Shown here one piece after another: positions 12,157-19,156 of a DNA stretch of 64,000 bases (position 1 is the stretch's first letter; every line of letters starts with the position of its first letter). Source of the stretch: Actinomycetes bacterium (GTDB taxonomy: Bacteria > Actinomycetota > Actinomycetes > Streptosporangiales > Streptosporangiaceae); contig JAJYTD010000009.1 in assembly GCA_021793235.1 (NCBI GenBank), positions 1 through 64,000 on the forward strand. Direction: 5' to 3'. The position numbers and the translations under genes were made by a program. The notes beneath the pieces are model-generated. The model had not been told where the DNA came from. It was given only the letters and a program-made list of their open reading frames with translations, and ran no database searches.

Positions 12157-12300
12157 GGACTCGTCGACCCGGGCCGGGTAGGTCCAGAAGTCGAGAAACC
12201 TCGCGGATTCGTGGCGCTCCTCGGACGGCGGGCCTAGCCTTGGGTGGCAAGGGACCCGCACAGCAGCCGGGCCAGGCCCCGAGCCGGTAAGGACGATCCC

Positions 12301-13473
12301 ATGGCAGAGCCGCATGCCGTCGTGGTCGGAGGCGGTGTCGGCGGGCTGGCCGCGGCGCTGGCCCTCCACCGCATCGGCTGGGCGGTCACCGTGTGCGAAC
12401 GCGCGCCCGCCGTGGACCCGGTCGATGTCGGCCTGACCCTGGCCCCCAATGCGCTGCGCGCGCTGGACACCCTCGATGTGGGCCGGGACGTCCGCAAGGG
12501 GTCGGTGTTCCAGGGTCTCGTGTCGATCCGGCACAGGGACGGCCGGTGGATCGTGCGCACCTCGGAGGCTGATGCGCGGCAGCGCTTCGGCGACGCCGTC
12601 TGCGTGCTGCGCTACGCCGAGCTCGCCGGGATCCTGCTGGGCCGCCTGCCCGCTGGGGCCGTGCGTACCGCCACCCGGGTGACCGCGGTGAATCCGGGCG
12701 ACACCCGGCGCCCGGCCCAGGTGGTCACCGACGCGGGAGAGCTCACCGCCGACCTCGTGGTGGTGGCCGACGGCGCCCGCTCGACCATCCGCCCCGAGCT
12801 GTTCCTCGAACATCCCGGCGCCGTTTACGCCGGTTTCACCTGCTGGCGCGCCATCGCACCATGGTCGGCCGATGTCGTGCCGGAGTTCGGTGAGACGTGG
12901 GGCCAGGGGGGTGTGGCGGGGGTGCTGCCGCTCAGCGGTGGCGAAGTCTACTGCTACGCCACCGTCAACTCCCCGGCCGGCGCTTTCGCGGCGGACGAGA
13001 AAGCGGAACTGGTACGGCACCTGGAGGGCTGGCCCGCCCCGCTCCCGGAGCTTGTAGCGGCGGCGCGGCCCGAATCAGTGGTGCGTATGGACATCTGGCA
13101 CATCGACACCCCGCTGCCCGCCTACCACAAGGGCCGTGTGGCGCTGCTCGGTGATGCCGCCCACGCGATGACGCCCAACCTGGGGCAGGGCGCGTGCCAG
13201 GCCGTCGAGGACGCCGTTGTACTGGCGCACCATGTCAGCGGTTCCATGGCCTATGTCCCGACGGCGCTGCAGTCCTATACCGATGCCCGGCTGCCGCGCA
13301 CGTCCGGGATGGTGCAGCGGTCGGCGCAGCTTGCCGAGGCGGTGCAGAGCGAATCCCCGTTCCTCACAGGGGTGCGCGACACCCTGGCGGGCGTCGTCGG
13401 GCGCCTTGCCCCGCACCTGCTGGCCCACTACATCCGCCCCGTCAGCGACTGGCACCCGCCTGTCGACGCGTGA
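12301..13473 (+). CDS. FAD-dependent aromatic monooxygenase (paralogue 1)
   Basis: 390 aa from ATG 12301, with AAGGA 7 nt upstream. It is a class A flavin monooxygenase: Rossmann GGGVGGLAAALAL at the start, the DG motif (VVVADGARSTIR) near residue 160, and the FAD-ribityl motif GDAAHAMTPNLGQGACQAVEDA near residue 285. The family hydroxylates aromatic or polyketide-like substrates using NAD(P)H and O2. The gene ends 24 nt before the convergent TetR gene, and a close paralogue lies on the other side of TetR, so the three probably form one catabolic or detoxification unit. The substrate is unknown. Confidence 0.9.
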   Translation: MAEPHAVVVGGGVGGLAAALALHRIGWAVTVCERAPAVDPVDVGLTLAPNALRALDTLDVGRDVRKGSVFQGLVSIRHRDGRWIVRTSEADARQRFGDAVCVLRYAELAGILLGRLPAGAVRTATRVTAVNPGDTRRPAQVVTDAGELTADLVVVADGARSTIRPELFLEHPGAVYAGFTCWRAIAPWSADVVPEFGETWGQGGVAGVLPLSGGEVYCYATVNSPAGAFAADEKAELVRHLEGWPAPLPELVAAARPESVVRMDIWHIDTPLPAYHKGRVALLGDAAHAMTPNLGQGACQAVEDAVVLAHHVSGSMAYVPTALQSYTDARLPRTSGMVQRSAQLAEAVQSESPFLTGVRDTLAGVVGRLAPHLLAHYIRPVSDWHPPVDA

Positions 13474-14145: not shown

Positions 14146-14164
14146 AATGGTGGGGAGGGTCGAT

Positions 14165-15367
14165 ATGGCCGAGCGGCGGGCCGTGGTGGTCGGTGCGGGG
14201 ATCGGCGGACTGACGGTCGCACGGGCACTTGCCGACGGCGGATGGGAGGTGACCGTCTGCGAGCGCGCACCGGGGCTGCGGCCGGCGGGCAGCGGCCTCG
14301 CTATCGCGCCGAACGCACTGCGCGGTCTGGATGTGATCGGAGAGGGCGAGGCGGTCCGGGAGCGGTCGGCGCTGGGCAGCGGCGGTATCCGAAGCTCCGA
14401 CGGCCGCTGGCTGATAGCCACCGACCTGGAGAAGCTCCGCGAGCGGTTCGGCGACACCATGGTCATCGTGCGCCGTTCGGAGCTGGTCGACCTGCTGGCG
14501 CGGGGGCTGCCCGACGGCGCGCTGCGGACCGGAACCGAGGTGGTCGAGGTAGACCCCGGAGACGAGGACCATCCGGCCCGTGTCCGCACAGCGGAGGGGA
14601 CGCGGACTGAAGCGGACCTCGTCGTCGCGGCCGACGGCATCGACTCCGTGCTCCGCCGCGCGCTGTTCCCAGCCCATCCCGGCCCCGCTTACTCCGGATT
14701 CACCGCCTGGCGCCTCGACGCCCCCGGGCTCGGGGAGGAGATCGCGGCGGCCGAGGTCTGGGGGCGGGGACTGCTCGCCGGGGCCATGCCCCTGGCGGAC
14801 GGTTCGGTCTATGCCTACTTCACCGCCAACGCCGCACCCGGGCAGAGAACGGCGGACGAGCGCGCGGAGCTGCTGCGCCGGTTCGGCTCCTGGCACGATC
14901 CCATCCCCCGGATCATCGCCGCGACCGCCGAGGAGGACATCCTCCGCAACGACGTGTGGTGGCTCCGCGAACCGCTGCCTGCGCTCCACACGGGCCGGGT
15001 GGCGCTGCTCGGCGACGCCGCGCACGCGATGACGCCCAACCTGGGGCAAGGGGCCTGCCAAGCCATCGAGGACGGGGTGACCCTGGCCCGCATGGTGGCG
15101 CCCCCGGGCGGGATCATGGCCGGACTCGCCGAGTACACGCGCGTGCGGCTGCCCCGCACCACCAGGATCGTTCGGCGCTCCGCCCGGGCCGGCGGCCTCC
15201 TGCAGTCGGAATCCCGGCTGGTCGCGGCCGTGCGCGACACTCTCATCGGCACGGTCGCCCGCTGTGCGCCCGGACTGTTCTACGGCGCGTTCGACCAGGT
15301 CTTCTCCTGGAGTCCACCGCAGGCGGGCGAGCCGGGCCCCGAAGCGGAGCCGCCGGACATGCGGTGA
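14165..15367 (+). CDS. FAD-dependent aromatic monooxygenase (paralogue 2)
   Basis: 400 aa from ATG 14165, preceded by GGGGAGGG with 5 nt spacing; an ATG at 14147 has no such site. Same architecture as the gene at 12301: GAGIGGLTVARAL, VVAADGIDSVLR, and GDAAHAMTPNLGQGACQAIEDG. Shared stretches such as VCERAP and AIAPNALRGLD versus TLAPNALRALD point to an old duplication. Its promoter lies across the TetR operator, so it is the likeliest direct target of that repressor. Substrate unknown; salicylate- or zeaxanthin-type epoxidase families are the nearest named groups. Confidence 0.9.
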   Translation: MAERRAVVVGAGIGGLTVARALADGGWEVTVCERAPGLRPAGSGLAIAPNALRGLDVIGEGEAVRERSALGSGGIRSSDGRWLIATDLEKLRERFGDTMVIVRRSELVDLLARGLPDGALRTGTEVVEVDPGDEDHPARVRTAEGTRTEADLVVAADGIDSVLRRALFPAHPGPAYSGFTAWRLDAPGLGEEIAAAEVWGRGLLAGAMPLADGSVYAYFTANAAPGQRTADERAELLRRFGSWHDPIPRIIAATAEEDILRNDVWWLREPLPALHTGRVALLGDAAHAMTPNLGQGACQAIEDGVTLARMVAPPGGIMAGLAEYTRVRLPRTTRIVRRSARAGGLLQSESRLVAAVRDTLIGTVARCAPGLFYGAFDQVFSWSPPQAGEPGPEAEPPDMR

Positions 15368-15540: not shown

Positions 15541-16143
15541 GTGGACTACCTCCCTCTACTGTTGCTGCTACTACTGATCGTCGTGATCGCCGGGATCATC
15601 GTGCTGTGGCGGCGCGGTCGAAGCACCGCGGCGCCCGCGGCACCCGCCCCGCCGAGCGACCCCTTCGCCGACGTCGGCGAGACCCAGGGCGATCCGCTCA
15701 CCCTCAAGGTCGGCGACATGCTCGACTTCGGCGCCGAACGCACCTGGGTCCGCGGTTCCCTGCGGCTCACCGAAGGCGGCGCCACCTGGGCCGAGCATTT
15801 CCTGGAAGTCGAGGACGGCAAGCGCTGGCTCTCCGTCGAACAGGACCCCGACCTCACAATGGCGCTGTGGACCGGCCGCCCCGAACTCGACCTCACCCCG
15901 CACGGGCGGGAGGTCGAACTCGAAGGCGTCCGCTACCGCATCACCGAGCGCGGCACCGCCTCCTACCGTTCCGAAGGCACCACCGGCCTGCGTGCCCAGG
16001 GCGGCATGGACTACGCCGACTACGAGGGGCCCCGCGGCGAGCGCCTCTCATTCGAACGGTTCGACCATGGGCGCTGGGAGGCCTCCACCGGGACCACCGT
16101 CGGGCGCGGCGAATTCACCATCTACCCGGCCTCTGGGGACTGA
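15541..16143 (+). CDS. DUF4178 membrane-anchored protein
   Basis: 200 aa from GTG 15541. One N-terminal membrane helix (PLLLLLLLIVVIAGIIVLW, residues 4-22) is followed by a proline/alanine linker and a beta-rich DUF4178 domain with its characteristic GDMLDFGAERTWVRGSLRL and HFLEVEDGKRWLSVEQD segments. It is the first gene of a five-gene set (DUF4178, DUF2617, DUF4247, DUF350, aminopropyltransferase) recurrent in actinobacteria, and the spacing to the next gene is 4 nt. Its biochemical role is unknown; the context points to membrane-associated polyamine or lipid-like chemistry. Confidence 0.88.
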   Translation: MDYLPLLLLLLLIVVIAGIIVLWRRGRSTAAPAAPAPPSDPFADVGETQGDPLTLKVGDMLDFGAERTWVRGSLRLTEGGATWAEHFLEVEDGKRWLSVEQDPDLTMALWTGRPELDLTPHGREVELEGVRYRITERGTASYRSEGTTGLRAQGGMDYADYEGPRGERLSFERFDHGRWEASTGTTVGRGEFTIYPASGD

Positions 16144-16147
16144 TCCG

Positions 16148-16696
16148 GTGCACCAGACCCTGAACACTCCCTTCGCCGACACCCGCGCCGGCGAACTGCG
16201 GTGGAGCCTGGACCGGGCCGCGCTTCCCGCCCTGCTGTCGCGCACCTGCGAGGTGGGCGGCCACACGCTGGAACTGCGCGTGCTGGGCGCCTCCCACCAA
16301 GTACGGCTGGGTACGGCCGCAGGGGCGGTCACCGAGACCGTCGCCTGCGTTCCGGGCCTTGCCGGCGACCTTCCCGAACTGGCCGCCCCGACCGTGCCGG
16401 GACTGGCGGACTACACATTCACCAGCGCCGTCAGCGTGCTGGACCCCGCGGCGTTCGCGGCCGAGGTCGCGCGTATCCGCGCCGCGACGGCACGGGACCC
16501 GCACGGCCTGGTCGCCTCGTTTCCGGGCAGTCCGCACGCCCTCACCGTCCTGCGCTGCGAGCCTGCGGGGGAGTCGGGGCTGCGCTGGCACACCTGGCAC
16601 ACCTATCCGCAGACCGGGGAGCTGGTGGCCACCACGACCACATGCGAGCCCGCGGGCCCGGTAAGGGGTCCGAGAACGAGAGGAGCCGGCCCGTGA
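16148..16696 (+). CDS. DUF2617 protein
   Basis: 182 aa from GTG 16148, 4 nt after the preceding stop. It is soluble, with no signal or membrane helix. The pattern (ADYTFTSAVSVLDPAAFAAEVARIRA, GLVASFPGSPHALTVLRCE, LRWHTWHTYPQTGELVATTTTCEP) matches the DUF2617 group found in this operon. Function unknown. Its stop overlaps the start of the next gene by 4 nt (GTGA), indicating translational coupling. Confidence 0.87.
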   Translation: MHQTLNTPFADTRAGELRWSLDRAALPALLSRTCEVGGHTLELRVLGASHQVRLGTAAGAVTETVACVPGLAGDLPELAAPTVPGLADYTFTSAVSVLDPAAFAAEVARIRAATARDPHGLVASFPGSPHALTVLRCEPAGESGLRWHTWHTYPQTGELVATTTTCEPAGPVRGPRTRGAGP

Positions 16697-17091
16697 GAAG
16701 CGCCAGCAGCAAAGTCGGGTGGATCGTCGCCATCATCGCGGTGATCATCGGGGCCGGCGTGCTGTTCTCCGGCAGCAGCTGCGGCGACTACGACCGGGTC
16801 CAGGTGAGCTCGTACGACTCCTCGTTCGACCCCGACGACTGGGAGCTCACCGACTCCGGCATCCGGTACACGGGCGAGGACCGCTCCTTCGATGACCGGG
16901 CCCCCGCCGGTGCCGACAAGGGGGCCGACGGTAACTACTACAGGTACGACCCCGGCGACGGCGACTACGAGAAGAACGGCGACCACTACGAGTACGTCGG
17001 CTGCTCGGACGGCTCCAGCGGTTCCGGCGGCTGGATCTTCACCGGCGGAGGCAGCTCCTACCGGGGCGGCGGCTCCGGGTTCGGCAAGTGA
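16693..17091 (+). CDS. DUF4247 protein
   Basis: 132 aa from GTG 16693, with AGGAG 7-8 nt upstream and a 4-nt overlap with the previous gene. An N-terminal hydrophobic helix (WIVAIIAVIIGAGVLF) is followed by S-G-S-S-C, a weak lipobox-like site. The rest is an extracytoplasmic, acidic, tyrosine-rich domain ending in a glycine/serine-rich tail (GSSYRGGGSGFGK). This composition is typical of DUF4247. Two further cysteines may form a disulfide. Function unknown. Confidence 0.85.
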   Translation: MRSASSKVGWIVAIIAVIIGAGVLFSGSSCGDYDRVQVSSYDSSFDPDDWELTDSGIRYTGEDRSFDDRAPAGADKGADGNYYRYDPGDGDYEKNGDHYEYVGCSDGSSGSGGWIFTGGGSSYRGGGSGFGK

Positions 17092-17147
17092 CCCCTCGAC
17101 CACCCTCCCCCTTCTCTTCTCCAAGACAACGATAAGGAAATCCCCTG

Positions 17148-17567
17148 ATGTATCTCCTCACGGAGGCCGCGTCCGGCCTGGCCTACGGGGGTGTCGGCAT
17201 CGTCCTGATGATCCTCGGCTTCTTGATCGTGGACGTGCTCACCCCCGGCAGGCTGCACAACCTCATCTGGGAGCAGCGCAACCGCAACGCCGCCCTGCTG
17301 GCGGCCAGCAACCTGCTCGGCGTTGCCATCGTGGTGACCGTGGCCATCTGGGTGAGCGAGGCCGGCCTGGTCCAGGGGCTGCTCAGCACGGCGGTCTACG
17401 GCGCCGTCGGACTGATGCTCATGGGGCTGTCGTTCCTGCTGATCGACCTGTTCATCCCGGTCAAGCTGGGCAAGCTGCTGACCCAGGACGAGCCGCACCC
17501 CGCCGCCTGGATCAGCGCCGCGGCGCACATCGGTATCGCGCTCATGGTCGCGGCGGCGATCTCCTGA
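17148..17567 (+). CDS. DUF350 integral membrane protein
   Basis: 139 aa from ATG 17148 with AAGGAAA 7 nt upstream. Four hydrophobic helices are visible, in two similar pairs (GGVGIVLMILGFLIVDVLTPG and GAVGLMLMGLSFLLIDLFIPV), the internal repeat typical of DUF350. Its stop codon overlaps the start of the aminopropyltransferase gene (TGATG). DUF350 proteins are frequently linked to polyamine-synthase-like genes, but their activity is not established. Confidence 0.9.
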   Translation: MYLLTEAASGLAYGGVGIVLMILGFLIVDVLTPGRLHNLIWEQRNRNAALLAASNLLGVAIVVTVAIWVSEAGLVQGLLSTAVYGAVGLMLMGLSFLLIDLFIPVKLGKLLTQDEPHPAAWISAAAHIGIALMVAAAIS

Positions 17568-19156
17568 TGAGCGCGACCGGCGAGGCCGCAGCACACGCGC
17601 CGGTGGAGGAGGGGCCGCAGTTGCCGGTGGCGCCCGGCCCGGCGCGGTTCCTGGTGCTGTTCGCCGTGTTCGTGTGCGCCGCGTGCGGACTGGTGTACGA
17701 GCTCGCCCTGGTCGCGCTGGGCAGTTATCTGCTGGGCGACACCATCGTGCAGGCGTCGATCGTGCTGTCGGTGATGGTGTTCGCCATGGGGATGGGGTCG
17801 CTGGCCGCCAAGCGCCTCACCGGCCGCCCCGCGTTCTGGTTCGCGGTGGTCGAAGGGGCGCTGTCGCTCGTCGGCGGGCTGTCGGTGCTCGCGCTCTATG
17901 CCGCGTTCGCGTGGTTCTCGCTGTACCAGCCGGCGCTGGTGCTGATCGCGTTCCTCATCGGCGCGCTGATCGGCGCGGAGATCCCGCTGCTGATGACGCT
18001 GCTGCAGCGCATCCGCAGACAGGAAGCGGCCAGCGCGGCGGCCGACATGTTCGCCGCCGACTACGTCGGCGGGCTGATCGGCGGCCTGGCGTTCCCGTTC
18101 GCGCTGCTCCCGGTGTTCGGGCTGCTCGAAGGAGCGCTGCTGGTGGGCGCCCTGAACGCGGTCGTGGGCATGTGGATCGTGCTCTGGCTGTTCGGCCGCT
18201 CGCTGCCGTTGCGGGCCCGCACGCTGCCCGCGATCGGTCTGGTGCTGGTCCTGGCGGTGCTCGCGGGCGGGTTCGTGCTGTCGGGGCGGTTCGAGGTGAG
18301 CGCCCGCCAGGCGCTGTACCGCGACCCCGTGGTGCACGCCGAACGCTCCGACTACCAGGAGATCGTGCTCACCCGGACACTGGACGGCTCCGATACCCGG
18401 CTGTTCCTCAACGGGGACCTGCAGTTCAGTTCGCAGGACGAGTACCGCTACCACGAGGCGCTGGTGCATCCGGCGATGAACGGAACGCACAGTGACGTGC
18501 TGGTGCTGGGCGGCGGCGACGGCCTGGCGCTGCGCGAGATCCTCGGCTACGACGGCGTCGAACGGGTCACCCTGGTCGACCTGGACCCCGCCGTCACCCG
18601 GCTGGCCCGCACCCACCCCGAGATCACGGAACTGAACGAAGGGGCGTTCGAGGACGAACGGGTGAACGCGGTCAGCGCTGACGCGTTCAACTGGCTGCGG
18701 GACAACAGGCAGCGCTTCGATGTGATCGTCGCGGACCTGCCCGACCCCGATGACGTGGGCACCGCGAAACTGTACTCCGTCGAGTTCTACGCGCTGGCCG
18801 AGCGGGCGCTGGCGGGCAAAGGCCGGATGGTCGTGCAGGCGGGGTCGCCGTTCTTCGCGCCGGACGCCTACTGGAGTGTCGGCGCCGGGCTCGCCGACGC
18901 GGGATGGGCGGCCAGCCCGTACAACGTCGACGTGCCCAGTTTCGGCAACTGGGGGTACTTCCTTGCCGCGCGGGGCGAGCACGCACCAGAGGTGGCGCTG
19001 CCAAAGGAGCATCCACGGCTGCGGTTCCTGGACGACGTCACTCTGGAGGCCGCCACGGTCTTTCCCAAGGACCGCCGCCCCACCGGTGCGGAGCCGTCCA
19101 CTCTCCTTTCCCCCCGCATCATCGACTACCACCGCGGCGCTTGGCAGGGGTACTGA
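17567..19156 (+). CDS. Membrane-embedded polyamine aminopropyltransferase (spermidine-synthase-like)
   Basis: 529 aa from ATG 17567. The N-terminal 240 residues contain about seven membrane helices (for example FLVLFAVFVCAACGLVYELAL). The C-terminal half is a Rossmann aminopropyltransferase domain with GGGDG in VLVLGGGDGLALREIL, the acidic D-L-D after strand 2, and VIVADLPDPDDVG, the position of the catalytic aspartate. The fold transfers an aminopropyl group from decarboxylated S-adenosylmethionine to an amine; a membrane-fused form may act on an unusual acceptor. It is the last gene of the DUF4178 operon, and no speD-type decarboxylase is nearby. Confidence 0.9.
   Translation: MSATGEAAAHAPVEEGPQLPVAPGPARFLVLFAVFVCAACGLVYELALVALGSYLLGDTIVQASIVLSVMVFAMGMGSLAAKRLTGRPAFWFAVVEGALSLVGGLSVLALYAAFAWFSLYQPALVLIAFLIGALIGAEIPLLMTLLQRIRRQEAASAAADMFAADYVGGLIGGLAFPFALLPVFGLLEGALLVGALNAVVGMWIVLWLFGRSLPLRARTLPAIGLVLVLAVLAGGFVLSGRFEVSARQALYRDPVVHAERSDYQEIVLTRTLDGSDTRLFLNGDLQFSSQDEYRYHEALVHPAMNGTHSDVLVLGGGDGLALREILGYDGVERVTLVDLDPAVTRLARTHPEITELNEGAFEDERVNAVSADAFNWLRDNRQRFDVIVADLPDPDDVGTAKLYSVEFYALAERALAGKGRMVVQAGSPFFAPDAYWSVGAGLADAGWAASPYNVDVPSFGNWGYFLAARGEHAPEVALPKEHPRLRFLDDVTLEAATVFPKDRRPTGAEPSTLLSPRIIDYHRGAWQGY

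What the first reader, a model, noticed from the sequence alone, without database searches (positions are those of the whole stretch)
15541..19156. Uncharacterised DUF4178-DUF2617-DUF4247-DUF350-aminopropyltransferase operon
Five tightly coupled genes (4-nt overlaps, TGATG junction) combine a seven-helix aminopropyltransferase that keeps its catalytic aspartate with three membrane or extracellular proteins of unknown function. The set recurs in actinobacteria, but its product is not established. The membrane context suggests modification of a lipid- or wall-linked amine rather than free spermidine.
Basis: partly seen in the sequence, partly recalled or inferred. Interest (0 to 1): 0.6.

Follow-up and report, generated by a model that had tools for sequence, protein, structure and literature searches.

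The report
Likely missing decarboxylase beside membrane aminopropyltransferase
This bacterial gene cluster appears to contain the long-missing enzyme that makes the aminopropyl donor (decarboxylated SAM) in actinobacteria and salt-loving archaea, next to a membrane enzyme that would hand that group on, possibly to a small exported protein that ends in lysine.

Summary
The operon is real and already noted in print (Ravi 2024, PMC11237479). What seems new is the likely role of two parts. (1) DUF2617 behaves like the missing AdoMet decarboxylase. In one family sample (201 genomes), all 74 with the seven-helix SpeE have either DUF2617 (63) or SpeD (11, one genus), never both. Haloarchaea pair DUF2617 directly with SpeE; 5 of 6 other bacterial loci read carry SpeD instead. 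DUF2617 profiles match SpeD remotely (hhalign 76-87%, shuffles far lower), but the window's own subfamily alone does not. A 2004 paper calls the missing decarboxylase the 'most glaring omission' in M. tuberculosis. (2) The small exported DUF4247-position protein ends in a Gly-rich tail with terminal lysine in 35 of 35 longer operons and in none of 9,309 other frames; that lysine is a candidate acceptor. SpeE loop charges predict an outward-facing catalytic domain. Activity, acceptor and topology are inferred, not shown.

The parts
15541..16143 (+). DUF4178 protein, GTG start; one N-terminal hydrophobic segment followed by RRGR, so the domain is probably cytosolic and membrane-anchored
   Evidence: Pfam PF13785 E 1.6e-34; translation; side of the membrane is inference
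16148..16696 (+). DUF2617: proposed divergent, tandem two-half AdoMet decarboxylase (source of dcAdoMet)
   Evidence: Pfam PF10936 E 1.7e-51; exchange with SpeD; remote profile match of the family to SpeD
16292..16297 (+). Ser49-His50 of DUF2617: position of the pyruvoyl-forming Ser of the ESH motif of SpeD (inferred)
   Evidence: Ser in 90 of 91 aligned rows, His in 89 of 91, the rest gaps; N-half register to ESH is weak (E 0.01-0.08)
16346..16348 (+). Cys67 of DUF2617: position of the catalytic Cys of SpeD (inferred)
   Evidence: Cys in 90 of 91 rows, one Tyr
16598..16609 (+). His151-x-Tyr-Pro of DUF2617: position of HTWPE of SpeD
   Evidence: His, Tyr, Pro in 47 of 47 actinobacterial rows and in 9 of 9 haloarchaeal rows of A4; the 44 haloarchaeal rows were chosen on this motif. 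C-half vs SpeD 88.6% combined, 91.8% haloarchaeal, 4.3% actinobacterial alone
16693..17091 (+). DUF4247-position small exported protein (one N-terminal hydrophobic segment)
   Evidence: position, shared tail, homologues hit PF14042; no Pfam hit of its own
17062..17088 (+). C-terminal tail RGGGSGFGK; terminal Lys (17086-17088) is the candidate aminopropyl acceptor
   Evidence: tail in 35 of 35 longer operons; acceptor role is inference
17148..17567 (+). DUF350, multi-helix membrane protein
   Evidence: Pfam PF03994 E 4.6e-27
17567..19156 (+). seven-helix membrane protein fused to a spermidine-synthase-type aminopropyltransferase domain
   Evidence: Pfam PF01564 E 8.1e-33; PDB relatives such as 7xif, 3anx; catalytic D318, D390, D393
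17645..18280 (+). seven hydrophobic segments (residues about 27-238); K/R-rich loops alternate, predicting N-in and catalytic domain out
   Evidence: hydropathy peaks and K+R counts over 50 rows

Best explanation
The operon encodes a self-contained membrane aminopropyl-transfer system. DUF2617 is a divergent AdoMet decarboxylase, with two half-domains in one chain: the first carries the pyruvoyl-type Ser-His and Cys, the second the His-x-Tyr-Pro. It makes decarboxylated SAM where no ordinary SpeD exists. The seven-helix SpeE then transfers the aminopropyl group. The most likely acceptor is the C-terminal lysine of the operon's small exported DUF4247 protein, or otherwise another envelope amine, rather than bulk free putrescine. 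DUF4178 and DUF350 are accessory membrane parts. Shown: gene content, conservation, mutual exclusion with SpeD in one family sample, remote profile similarity, tail conservation. Inferred: decarboxylase activity, acceptor, topology. My odds by step: DUF2617 as dcAdoMet source 0.75; product not a bulk free polyamine 0.6; the tail lysine as acceptor 0.35.
For: In a family sample of 201 genomes, the seven-helix SpeE occurs in 74 (one of them split in two frames); 63 of these have DUF2617 and no PF02675, the other 11 have PF02675 and no DUF2617 (tallied in 108). The own genome has DUF2617 and no PF02675; 40 of 42 DUF2617 genomes in the class sample lack PF02675, as do 36 of 37 haloarchaeal ones (37 of the 39 loci were given). 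Of 14 control genomes, DUF2617 rings only in C. glutamicum and H. volcanii, which ring for Spermine_synth but not for PF02675. Of 49 plasmid records with a SpeE match I read 11 loci: of six bacterial ones, 5 have SpeD within 3 kb (one on the other strand), and none has a credible DUF2617 (annotated). In 47 of 49 haloarchaeal loci DUF2617 lies beside SpeE; the other two are cut off upstream (three loci were fetched twice). hhalign to 17 SpeD rows: haloarchaeal DUF2617 87.3% (score 38.9; 120 column shuffles at most 18.1), combined 91 rows 80.6% (35.9 vs 16.7); SpeD as query against the haloarchaeal profile 76.4%; four unrelated families at most 0.44%. The SpeD HMM run over 4,897 haloarchaeal ORFs puts DUF2617 ORFs in its top 26 places. 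PMC524486 (passages) reports the missing decarboxylase gene and activity in M. bovis homogenates. Tail: 35 of 35 longer operons, 0 of 9,309 other ORFs.
Against: No activity is shown. The window's own subfamily alone does not match SpeD above shuffles (18.9 vs up to 19.65), and the window protein has no PF02675 hit. The Glu before the cleavage Ser is Ala in all 47 actinobacterial rows and Glu in only 16 of 44 haloarchaeal ones. The haloarchaeal rows, which carry the profile match, were partly gathered and filtered on the ETYHTY motif, so that motif is over-weighted; the 9 rows of A4, found by other means, show it too. Single-sequence SpeD hits are weak (best E 0.008). Foldseek finds nothing at E<=0.001; AdoMetDC entries reach Z 5.9-6.0 but tie with many PR-10/START folds. 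SpeD is rare in the class anyway (7 of 197), so its absence alone says little; the strict exclusion rests mainly on one genus (g5) and the Fisher value is not corrected for kinship. Two genomes of family f3 and one Halosimplex have both. The predicted outward catalytic domain leaves it unexplained how cytosolic dcAdoMet reaches it. Haloarchaeal partners do not end in Lys, and the f3 loci keep DUF2617-SpeE without any tail protein.
Confidence: 0.6

Rival explanations
1. Ordinary polyamine synthesis: DUF2617 makes dcAdoMet and SpeE makes free spermidine/spermine at the membrane; the other genes regulate or transport it.
For: SpeE keeps the spermidine-synthase motifs; PMC11841054 (passage) states that spermine synthesis is reported in Streptomyces and Mycobacterium and names Rv2601 spermidine synthase; PMC8998196 (passage) mentions putrescine and spermidine synthesis in S. 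coelicolor.
Against: PMC8503589 and PMC8394153 report no detectable polyamines in M. smegmatis and halobacteria; the conserved exported tail protein and the membrane fusion are unexplained.
Confidence: 0.25
2. Aminopropylation of a lipid- or wall-linked amine, with dcAdoMet from DUF2617.
For: Membrane fusion, predicted outward catalytic domain, exported partner protein.
Against: Nothing found points to a lipid or wall acceptor; but neighbours outside the five families were not annotated in the actinobacterial loci, so this is not excluded.
Confidence: 0.2
3. DUF2617 is not a decarboxylase; SpeE uses SAM itself (3-amino-3-carboxypropyl transfer) or an imported donor, and DUF2617 has another role.
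For: No activity shown; indecisive structural evidence; the Glu of ESH is mostly absent; the window's subfamily alone does not match SpeD.
Against: The SpeD/DUF2617 exchange, the profile match, and conservation of canonical aminopropyltransferase Asp residues in SpeE.
Confidence: 0.15
4. Envelope-stress sensor: the system monitors polyamine level or aminopropylation to adjust the membrane, as proposed for PspA-linked relatives.
For: Proposed in PMC11237479 (passages) from gene neighbourhoods.
Against: None of the five operon proteins is PspA or CesT/Tir by Pfam (the rest of the window was not searched); the idea does not conflict with the chemistry proposed here.
Confidence: 0.15

Closest known systems
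Operon variant described by Ravi et al. 2024 (PMC11237479; DUF4247 e.g. CCP45395.1, DUF2617 e.g. CCP45394.1)
   Same: DUF2617 and DUF4247 in one variant of this operon family; DUF2617 is predicted there to be an enzyme with two conserved His, an Asp and a Glu; [quoted passage not shown] aminopropylation of other substrates is suggested (passages).
   Different: DUF2617 is called a beta-sandwich enzyme; in the passages I saw it is not linked to AdoMet decarboxylase, and neither SpeD exclusion nor the Lys tail is mentioned.
Class 1 AdoMet decarboxylase SpeD (PF02675; T. maritima 1tlu, 1tmi, 1vr7; A. aeolicus 2iii)
   Same: Profile similarity over the F.P..VT...HTWPE segment, matching Ser-His, Cys and His positions, and a C-half model with strand-helix-four strands; that SpeD has the same order is recalled.
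   Different: Two half-domains in one chain instead of a homodimer (recalled), Ala in place of Glu before the Ser in actinobacterial members, no PF02675 hit for the window protein.
Spermidine synthase (PF01564; 7xif, 3anx, 1uir)
   Same: GGGDG, DxxDP, YQE motifs kept.
   Different: Fused to seven membrane helices and embedded in an envelope operon.
SPFH-DUF4178-DUF350-SpeE-oxidase-SpeD operon of Novosphingobium (L103) and the related Alteromonas cluster (L107)
   Same: Related SpeE, DUF350, DUF4178 and a protein ending in Lys.
   Different: SpeD instead of DUF2617; extra SPFH, oxidase or toxic-anion-resistance genes.
Diatom silaffins
   Same: Lysines carrying propylamine units; an AdoMetDC and aminopropyltransferase are suspected (PMC3820600 passages).
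   Different: Eukaryotic, long poly-propylamine chains, unrelated proteins.

Membership tests
AdoMet decarboxylase (SpeD) superfamily | match of the window protein to the curated family model PF02675 | tested here: not met
   only PF10936 hit at E<=1
AdoMet decarboxylase (SpeD) superfamily | profile-level homology of the DUF2617 family to SpeD | tested here: met
   80.6% combined, 87.3% haloarchaeal (76.4% with SpeD as query), shuffles far below; actinobacterial rows alone 2.7%, not significant; haloarchaeal-actinobacterial link 97.4%
AdoMet decarboxylase (SpeD) superfamily | pyruvoyl-forming Ser in an E-S-H site | tested here: inconclusive
   Ser 90/91 and His 89/91, but Glu only 16/44 haloarchaeal and 0/47 actinobacterial rows
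AdoMet decarboxylase (SpeD) superfamily | catalytic Cys and processing His | tested here: inconclusive
   Cys 90/91; His in 47/47 actinobacterial rows and in the haloarchaeal rows, most of which were chosen on that motif; equivalence rests on a strong C-half and a weak N-half alignment
AdoMet decarboxylase (SpeD) superfamily | AdoMetDC fold | tested here: inconclusive
   C-half model vs 2iii, 1tlu, 1vr7, 1tmi: Z 5.9-6.0, rmsd 3.5-4.2, 74-78 aligned, tied with unrelated folds
AdoMet decarboxylase (SpeD) superfamily | self-cleavage and SAM decarboxylation | not testable with these tools
   bench assay needed
Spermidine/spermine synthase (aminopropyltransferase) | Spermine_synth domain with GGGDG and DxxDP | tested here: met
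Spermidine/spermine synthase (aminopropyltransferase) | transfer of aminopropyl from dcAdoMet to a free diamine | not testable with these tools
   acceptor unknown
Ravi et al. DUF2617/DUF4247 operon variant | DUF2617 and DUF4247 in an operon with DUF350, DUF4178 and the seven-helix SpeE | tested here: met
   DUF4247 by position, tail and homologues

The most novel reading that the evidence does not exclude
A dedicated protein-aminopropylation machine works at the outer face of the cytoplasmic membrane: DUF2617 makes dcAdoMet inside, the seven-helix domain passes or presents it, and the outward SpeE domain adds aminopropyl units to the C-terminal lysine of a lipoprotein tail (GGGxGxGK). It would be a new post-translational modification system in bacteria, with a counterpart acting on a different tail in haloarchaea.
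Probability: 0.25. Interest if true: 0.92.

Novelty: new variant of a known kind. Interest (0 to 1): 0.78.

Why it matters
If DUF2617 is an AdoMet decarboxylase, it fills a gap pointed out in 2004 for mycobacteria (spermidine synthase gene and decarboxylase activity but no decarboxylase gene) and explains how actinobacteria and haloarchaea without SpeD could feed aminopropyltransferases. It makes a specific, cheap enzyme assay possible. If the lysine tail is the acceptor, it would define a new envelope protein modification.

Tried and rejected
Full-length DUF2617 model against the PDB: no Foldseek hit at E<=0.001; best Z 5.7 to an uncharacterised protein; AdoMetDC entries are not among the 50 entries shown, human spermine synthase is (Z 4.3, rmsd 3.4, 71 aligned). 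Profile of DUF2617 against PDB sequences: none at E<=10. Eukaryotic-type decarboxylase PF01536 in the own genome: none, but nothing rang in controls either, so uninformative. tblastn of the window DUF2617 and of an actinobacterial SpeD in plasmids: no match. Internal repeat N-half vs C-half: not significant. The first hhalign with six SpeD rows was only suggestive (P 0.01, 4%). Paper searches showed, in listings and passages seen, no statement that DUF2617 is a decarboxylase; of the three held papers that name DUF2617 I read passages of two and only the listing of PMC9505326. That is the extent of the novelty check. Li et al. 2019 (BCJ20190561) is not held and is known to me only from the reference list and text of PMC11237479; its title suggests that it bears on SpeD linkage.

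Considered and dropped: the DUF2617-HMM hit in L103 (E 4e-3), because it falls in the annotated SPFH gene. The phylum sample (14 of 198) was too thin per class and was replaced by the class sample; two of its loci (L087, L088) stay in the alignments. L089 (a DUF2617 hit below the cut-off) gave no hits with my profiles and is left out of the counts. One haloarchaeal DUF2617 row (L157) was dropped before the alignment because it lacked the motif used for trimming, and identical rows were merged. Of the 39 loci, L127 and L160 were not given.


Full report
OBSERVATION. The five genes are at the stated place. Their coupling is tight at three of four junctions: 4 nt between DUF4178 and DUF2617, a 4-nt overlap of DUF2617 and the DUF4247 gene, and a one-base overlap TGATG of DUF350 and SpeE; 56 nt separate the DUF4247 gene from DUF350. 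Pfam names four of five. The fifth has no Pfam match of its own, but the three actinobacterial proteins tested from the same position in other genomes match DUF4247. The SpeE part keeps D318, D390 and D393. Outside family f3's short loci, D390 and D393 are Asp in 35 of 36 alignment rows, the other row being a gap from a split gene; D318 is Asp in 34, with one Glu and that gap.

RECURRENCE. In 197 genomes of the class, DUF2617 occurs in 42. I fetched the surroundings of all 45 DUF2617 genes (46 match rows, two being pieces of one gene, plus the window) and found a seven-helix SpeE gene within about 1.5 kb of every one (split in two frames in L083). Fifteen loci of the unnamed family f3 (I guess Streptomyces, from genome size) keep only DUF2617 and SpeE, so those two look like the core. 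Some of these SpeE copies are decayed: D390 is lost in 1 of 15, D393 in 3 of 15.

MISSING DONOR. Aminopropyltransferases need dcAdoMet (established knowledge). The own genome has no PF02675 decarboxylase, nor do 40 of 42 DUF2617 genomes of the class. SpeD is rare in this class (7 of 197), so this alone is weak. The sharper test is a family sample of 201 genomes: seven-helix SpeE in 74 at E<=1e-20 (near full length in all, in one as two pieces), DUF2617 in 63, PF02675 in 23. All 63 DUF2617 genomes are among the 74, none has PF02675, and the remaining 11 all have PF02675 (Fisher p 2e-13, not corrected for kinship, the 11 being one genus, g5). Genus g244 holds one genome of each kind: G427 with DUF2617 and SpeE, and G451 with SpeD and no seven-helix SpeE. 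A second lineage, G264, has DUF4178, DUF350, SpeE and SpeD but no DUF2617. In G050, G289 and G264 the SpeD gene is not in the operon but elsewhere in the genome. In the class sample I recognised DUF2617-less seven-helix SpeE genomes from high Spermine_synth scores and fetched only G050, G289 and G264 (G338 proved to be a short SpeE); I did not check every weaker hit.

OTHER PHYLA. tblastn of the window SpeE in plasmid records found 49; I read 11 of these loci. Six are bacterial: Gemmatirosa, Ensifer, Burkholderia, Novosphingobium, Tritonibacter and Alteromonas. Five have SpeD within 3 kb (in Burkholderia on the other strand), Tritonibacter has none in the stretch, and none has a credible DUF2617. 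Novosphingobium shows SPFH, DUF4178, DUF4178, small protein, DUF350, SpeE, oxidase, speD in a row; Alteromonas has SpeE followed by speD, then DUF4178 and DUF350. In the haloarchaeal loci, SpeE is followed at once by DUF2617. Over 49 loci, three of them fetched twice, 47 show the pair and two are cut off upstream. Of 37 haloarchaeal DUF2617 genomes tested, 36 lack PF02675. Two of the 14 control genomes, C. glutamicum and H. volcanii, have DUF2617, and both have Spermine_synth without PF02675. A Halobaculum plasmid carries an ordinary SpeD-SpeE set with no DUF2617 annotated within 5 kb.

HOMOLOGY. Haloarchaeal DUF2617 carries G-x-S-H (x often Ser, Glu or Asn), a CSC-type site and YETYHTYPE, close to ESH, FTC and IHTWPE of SpeD. 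hhalign against 17 SpeD sequences gives 87.3% for 44 haloarchaeal rows and 80.6% for the combined 91 rows, well above 120 column shuffles; with SpeD as query it is 76.4%. Four unrelated families give at most 0.44%, and haloarchaeal and actinobacterial DUF2617 join at 97.4%. The 47 actinobacterial rows alone are not significant. A caution: the genome scan that supplied most haloarchaeal rows used an ETYHTY pattern and I trimmed on ETYHTYP, dropping one row without it, so that motif is over-weighted; the nine rows of A4, found through SpeE or a full-length search, all have it. Split in halves, the C-half carries the signal (91.8% haloarchaeal, 88.6% combined, 4.3% actinobacterial). The N-half aligns weakly (E 0.01-0.08) but in the register that puts its Ser-His on ESH and, in the haloarchaeal and combined sets, its Cys on FTC. 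The SpeD HMM run over 4,897 haloarchaeal ORFs ranks DUF2617 ORFs in its first 26 places; each is weak (best E 0.008; ranks). In 91 rows, Ser49 is kept in 90, His50 in 89, Cys67 in 90, and Ala131 and Thr133 in all. That T. maritima Ser63 is the processing Ser is seen in the title of 1tmi; His68, Cys83 and the human counterparts are recalled. AlphaFold models are confident (pLDDT 93.5 and 93.7). The C-half has strand-helix-four strands; that SpeD has this order is recalled. Its VIA-align list holds the four longer prokaryotic AdoMetDC entries that the PDB sequence search found (Z 5.9-6.0, 14-15% identity), but PR-10/START folds score as well or better, so the fold comparison does not decide.

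LITERATURE. PMC524486 (passages) says M. tuberculosis lacks a decarboxylase homologue while having a spermidine synthase homologue, and that activity was seen in M. bovis homogenates with the enzyme not identified. That the tuberculosis operon is Rv2597-Rv2601 is recalled, except Rv2601 = speE and the accessions in PMC11237479. M. smegmatis (PMC8503589) and halobacteria (PMC8394153) are reported without detectable polyamines, which speaks against a bulk free polyamine as product; other papers mention spermidine or spermine in Streptomyces and Mycobacterium.

TAIL. The small protein between DUF2617 (or DUF4178) and DUF350 differs widely in length and sequence, yet ends in a tail like R-G-G-G-[PS]-G-x-G-K. 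I first saw it in 33 of 33 loci. A pattern written after that matches 35 of 9,344 ORFs (60 codons or more, six frames) in 58 loci: exactly one in each of the 35 loci with the longer operon, including the three SpeD-bearing ones, and none in the other 23 loci or elsewhere. Not all five genes were detected by my profiles in each of the 35: no DUF350 hit in L064, no DUF4178 hit in L061, L072, L074, L079 and L088. Only 155 of the 9,344 ORFs end in Lys. All 35 have an N-terminal hydrophobic segment and 23 a loose lipobox. Proteins in the Ensifer (GGGPESGK), Burkholderia (GSHK), Novosphingobium (GPSHK) and Alteromonas (GPSSGK) loci also end in Lys; the haloarchaeal lipoprotein beside SpeE ends in WKVSPRI in the three read. 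A free, conserved C-terminal Lys in the partner of an aminopropyltransferase is the most economical acceptor, but this is inference.

TOPOLOGY. Over 50 SpeE rows, mean K+R is 2.96 (N-terminus), 0, 2.72, 0.30, 2.74, 0, 3.38 in successive loops. By the positive-inside rule the N-terminus is inside and, with seven helices, the catalytic domain outside, on the same side as the exported tail. How dcAdoMet would reach it is unexplained; the membrane domain itself may carry it.

VERDICT. The operon was known; the role of DUF2617 as the missing dcAdoMet source is supported by several lines but unproven, and the lysine-tail acceptor is a bold, testable idea.

Noticed in passing
L040 and L041 (1501-1809, minus strand), genomes G193 and G023: SpeD-like proteins of family f3 with S-A-S-H in place of E-S-H and no Cys (LLAYG); they coexist with DUF2617 and may not be working decarboxylases.
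   Followed up: partly
L057 7564-9117, L054, L055: Family f3 SpeE copies beside DUF2617 with damaged active sites (for example both loop Asp replaced in L057), while the DUF2617 of L057 keeps its conserved residues.
   Followed up: partly
L083 9520-11064: Seven-helix part and SpeE part are separate frames, and the operon order is changed (DUF350 first); its DUF2617 has Tyr for the conserved Cys.
   Followed up: no
L105 4007-4696, L108 4009-4749, L110 4259-4969: Haloarchaeal lipoprotein upstream of SpeE with a conserved C-terminal WKVSPRI.
   Followed up: partly
L107 7665-14323: Alteromonas plasmid cluster joins SpeE-speD with a toxic-anion-resistance protein, DUF4178 and DUF350.
   Followed up: no
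window 12244-13473 and 14147-15367: Two similar FAD-oxidase-like frames lie upstream on the same strand; a fumarate-reductase/succinate-dehydrogenase-like set lies downstream on the minus strand (from reading the translations, not searched).
   Followed up: no
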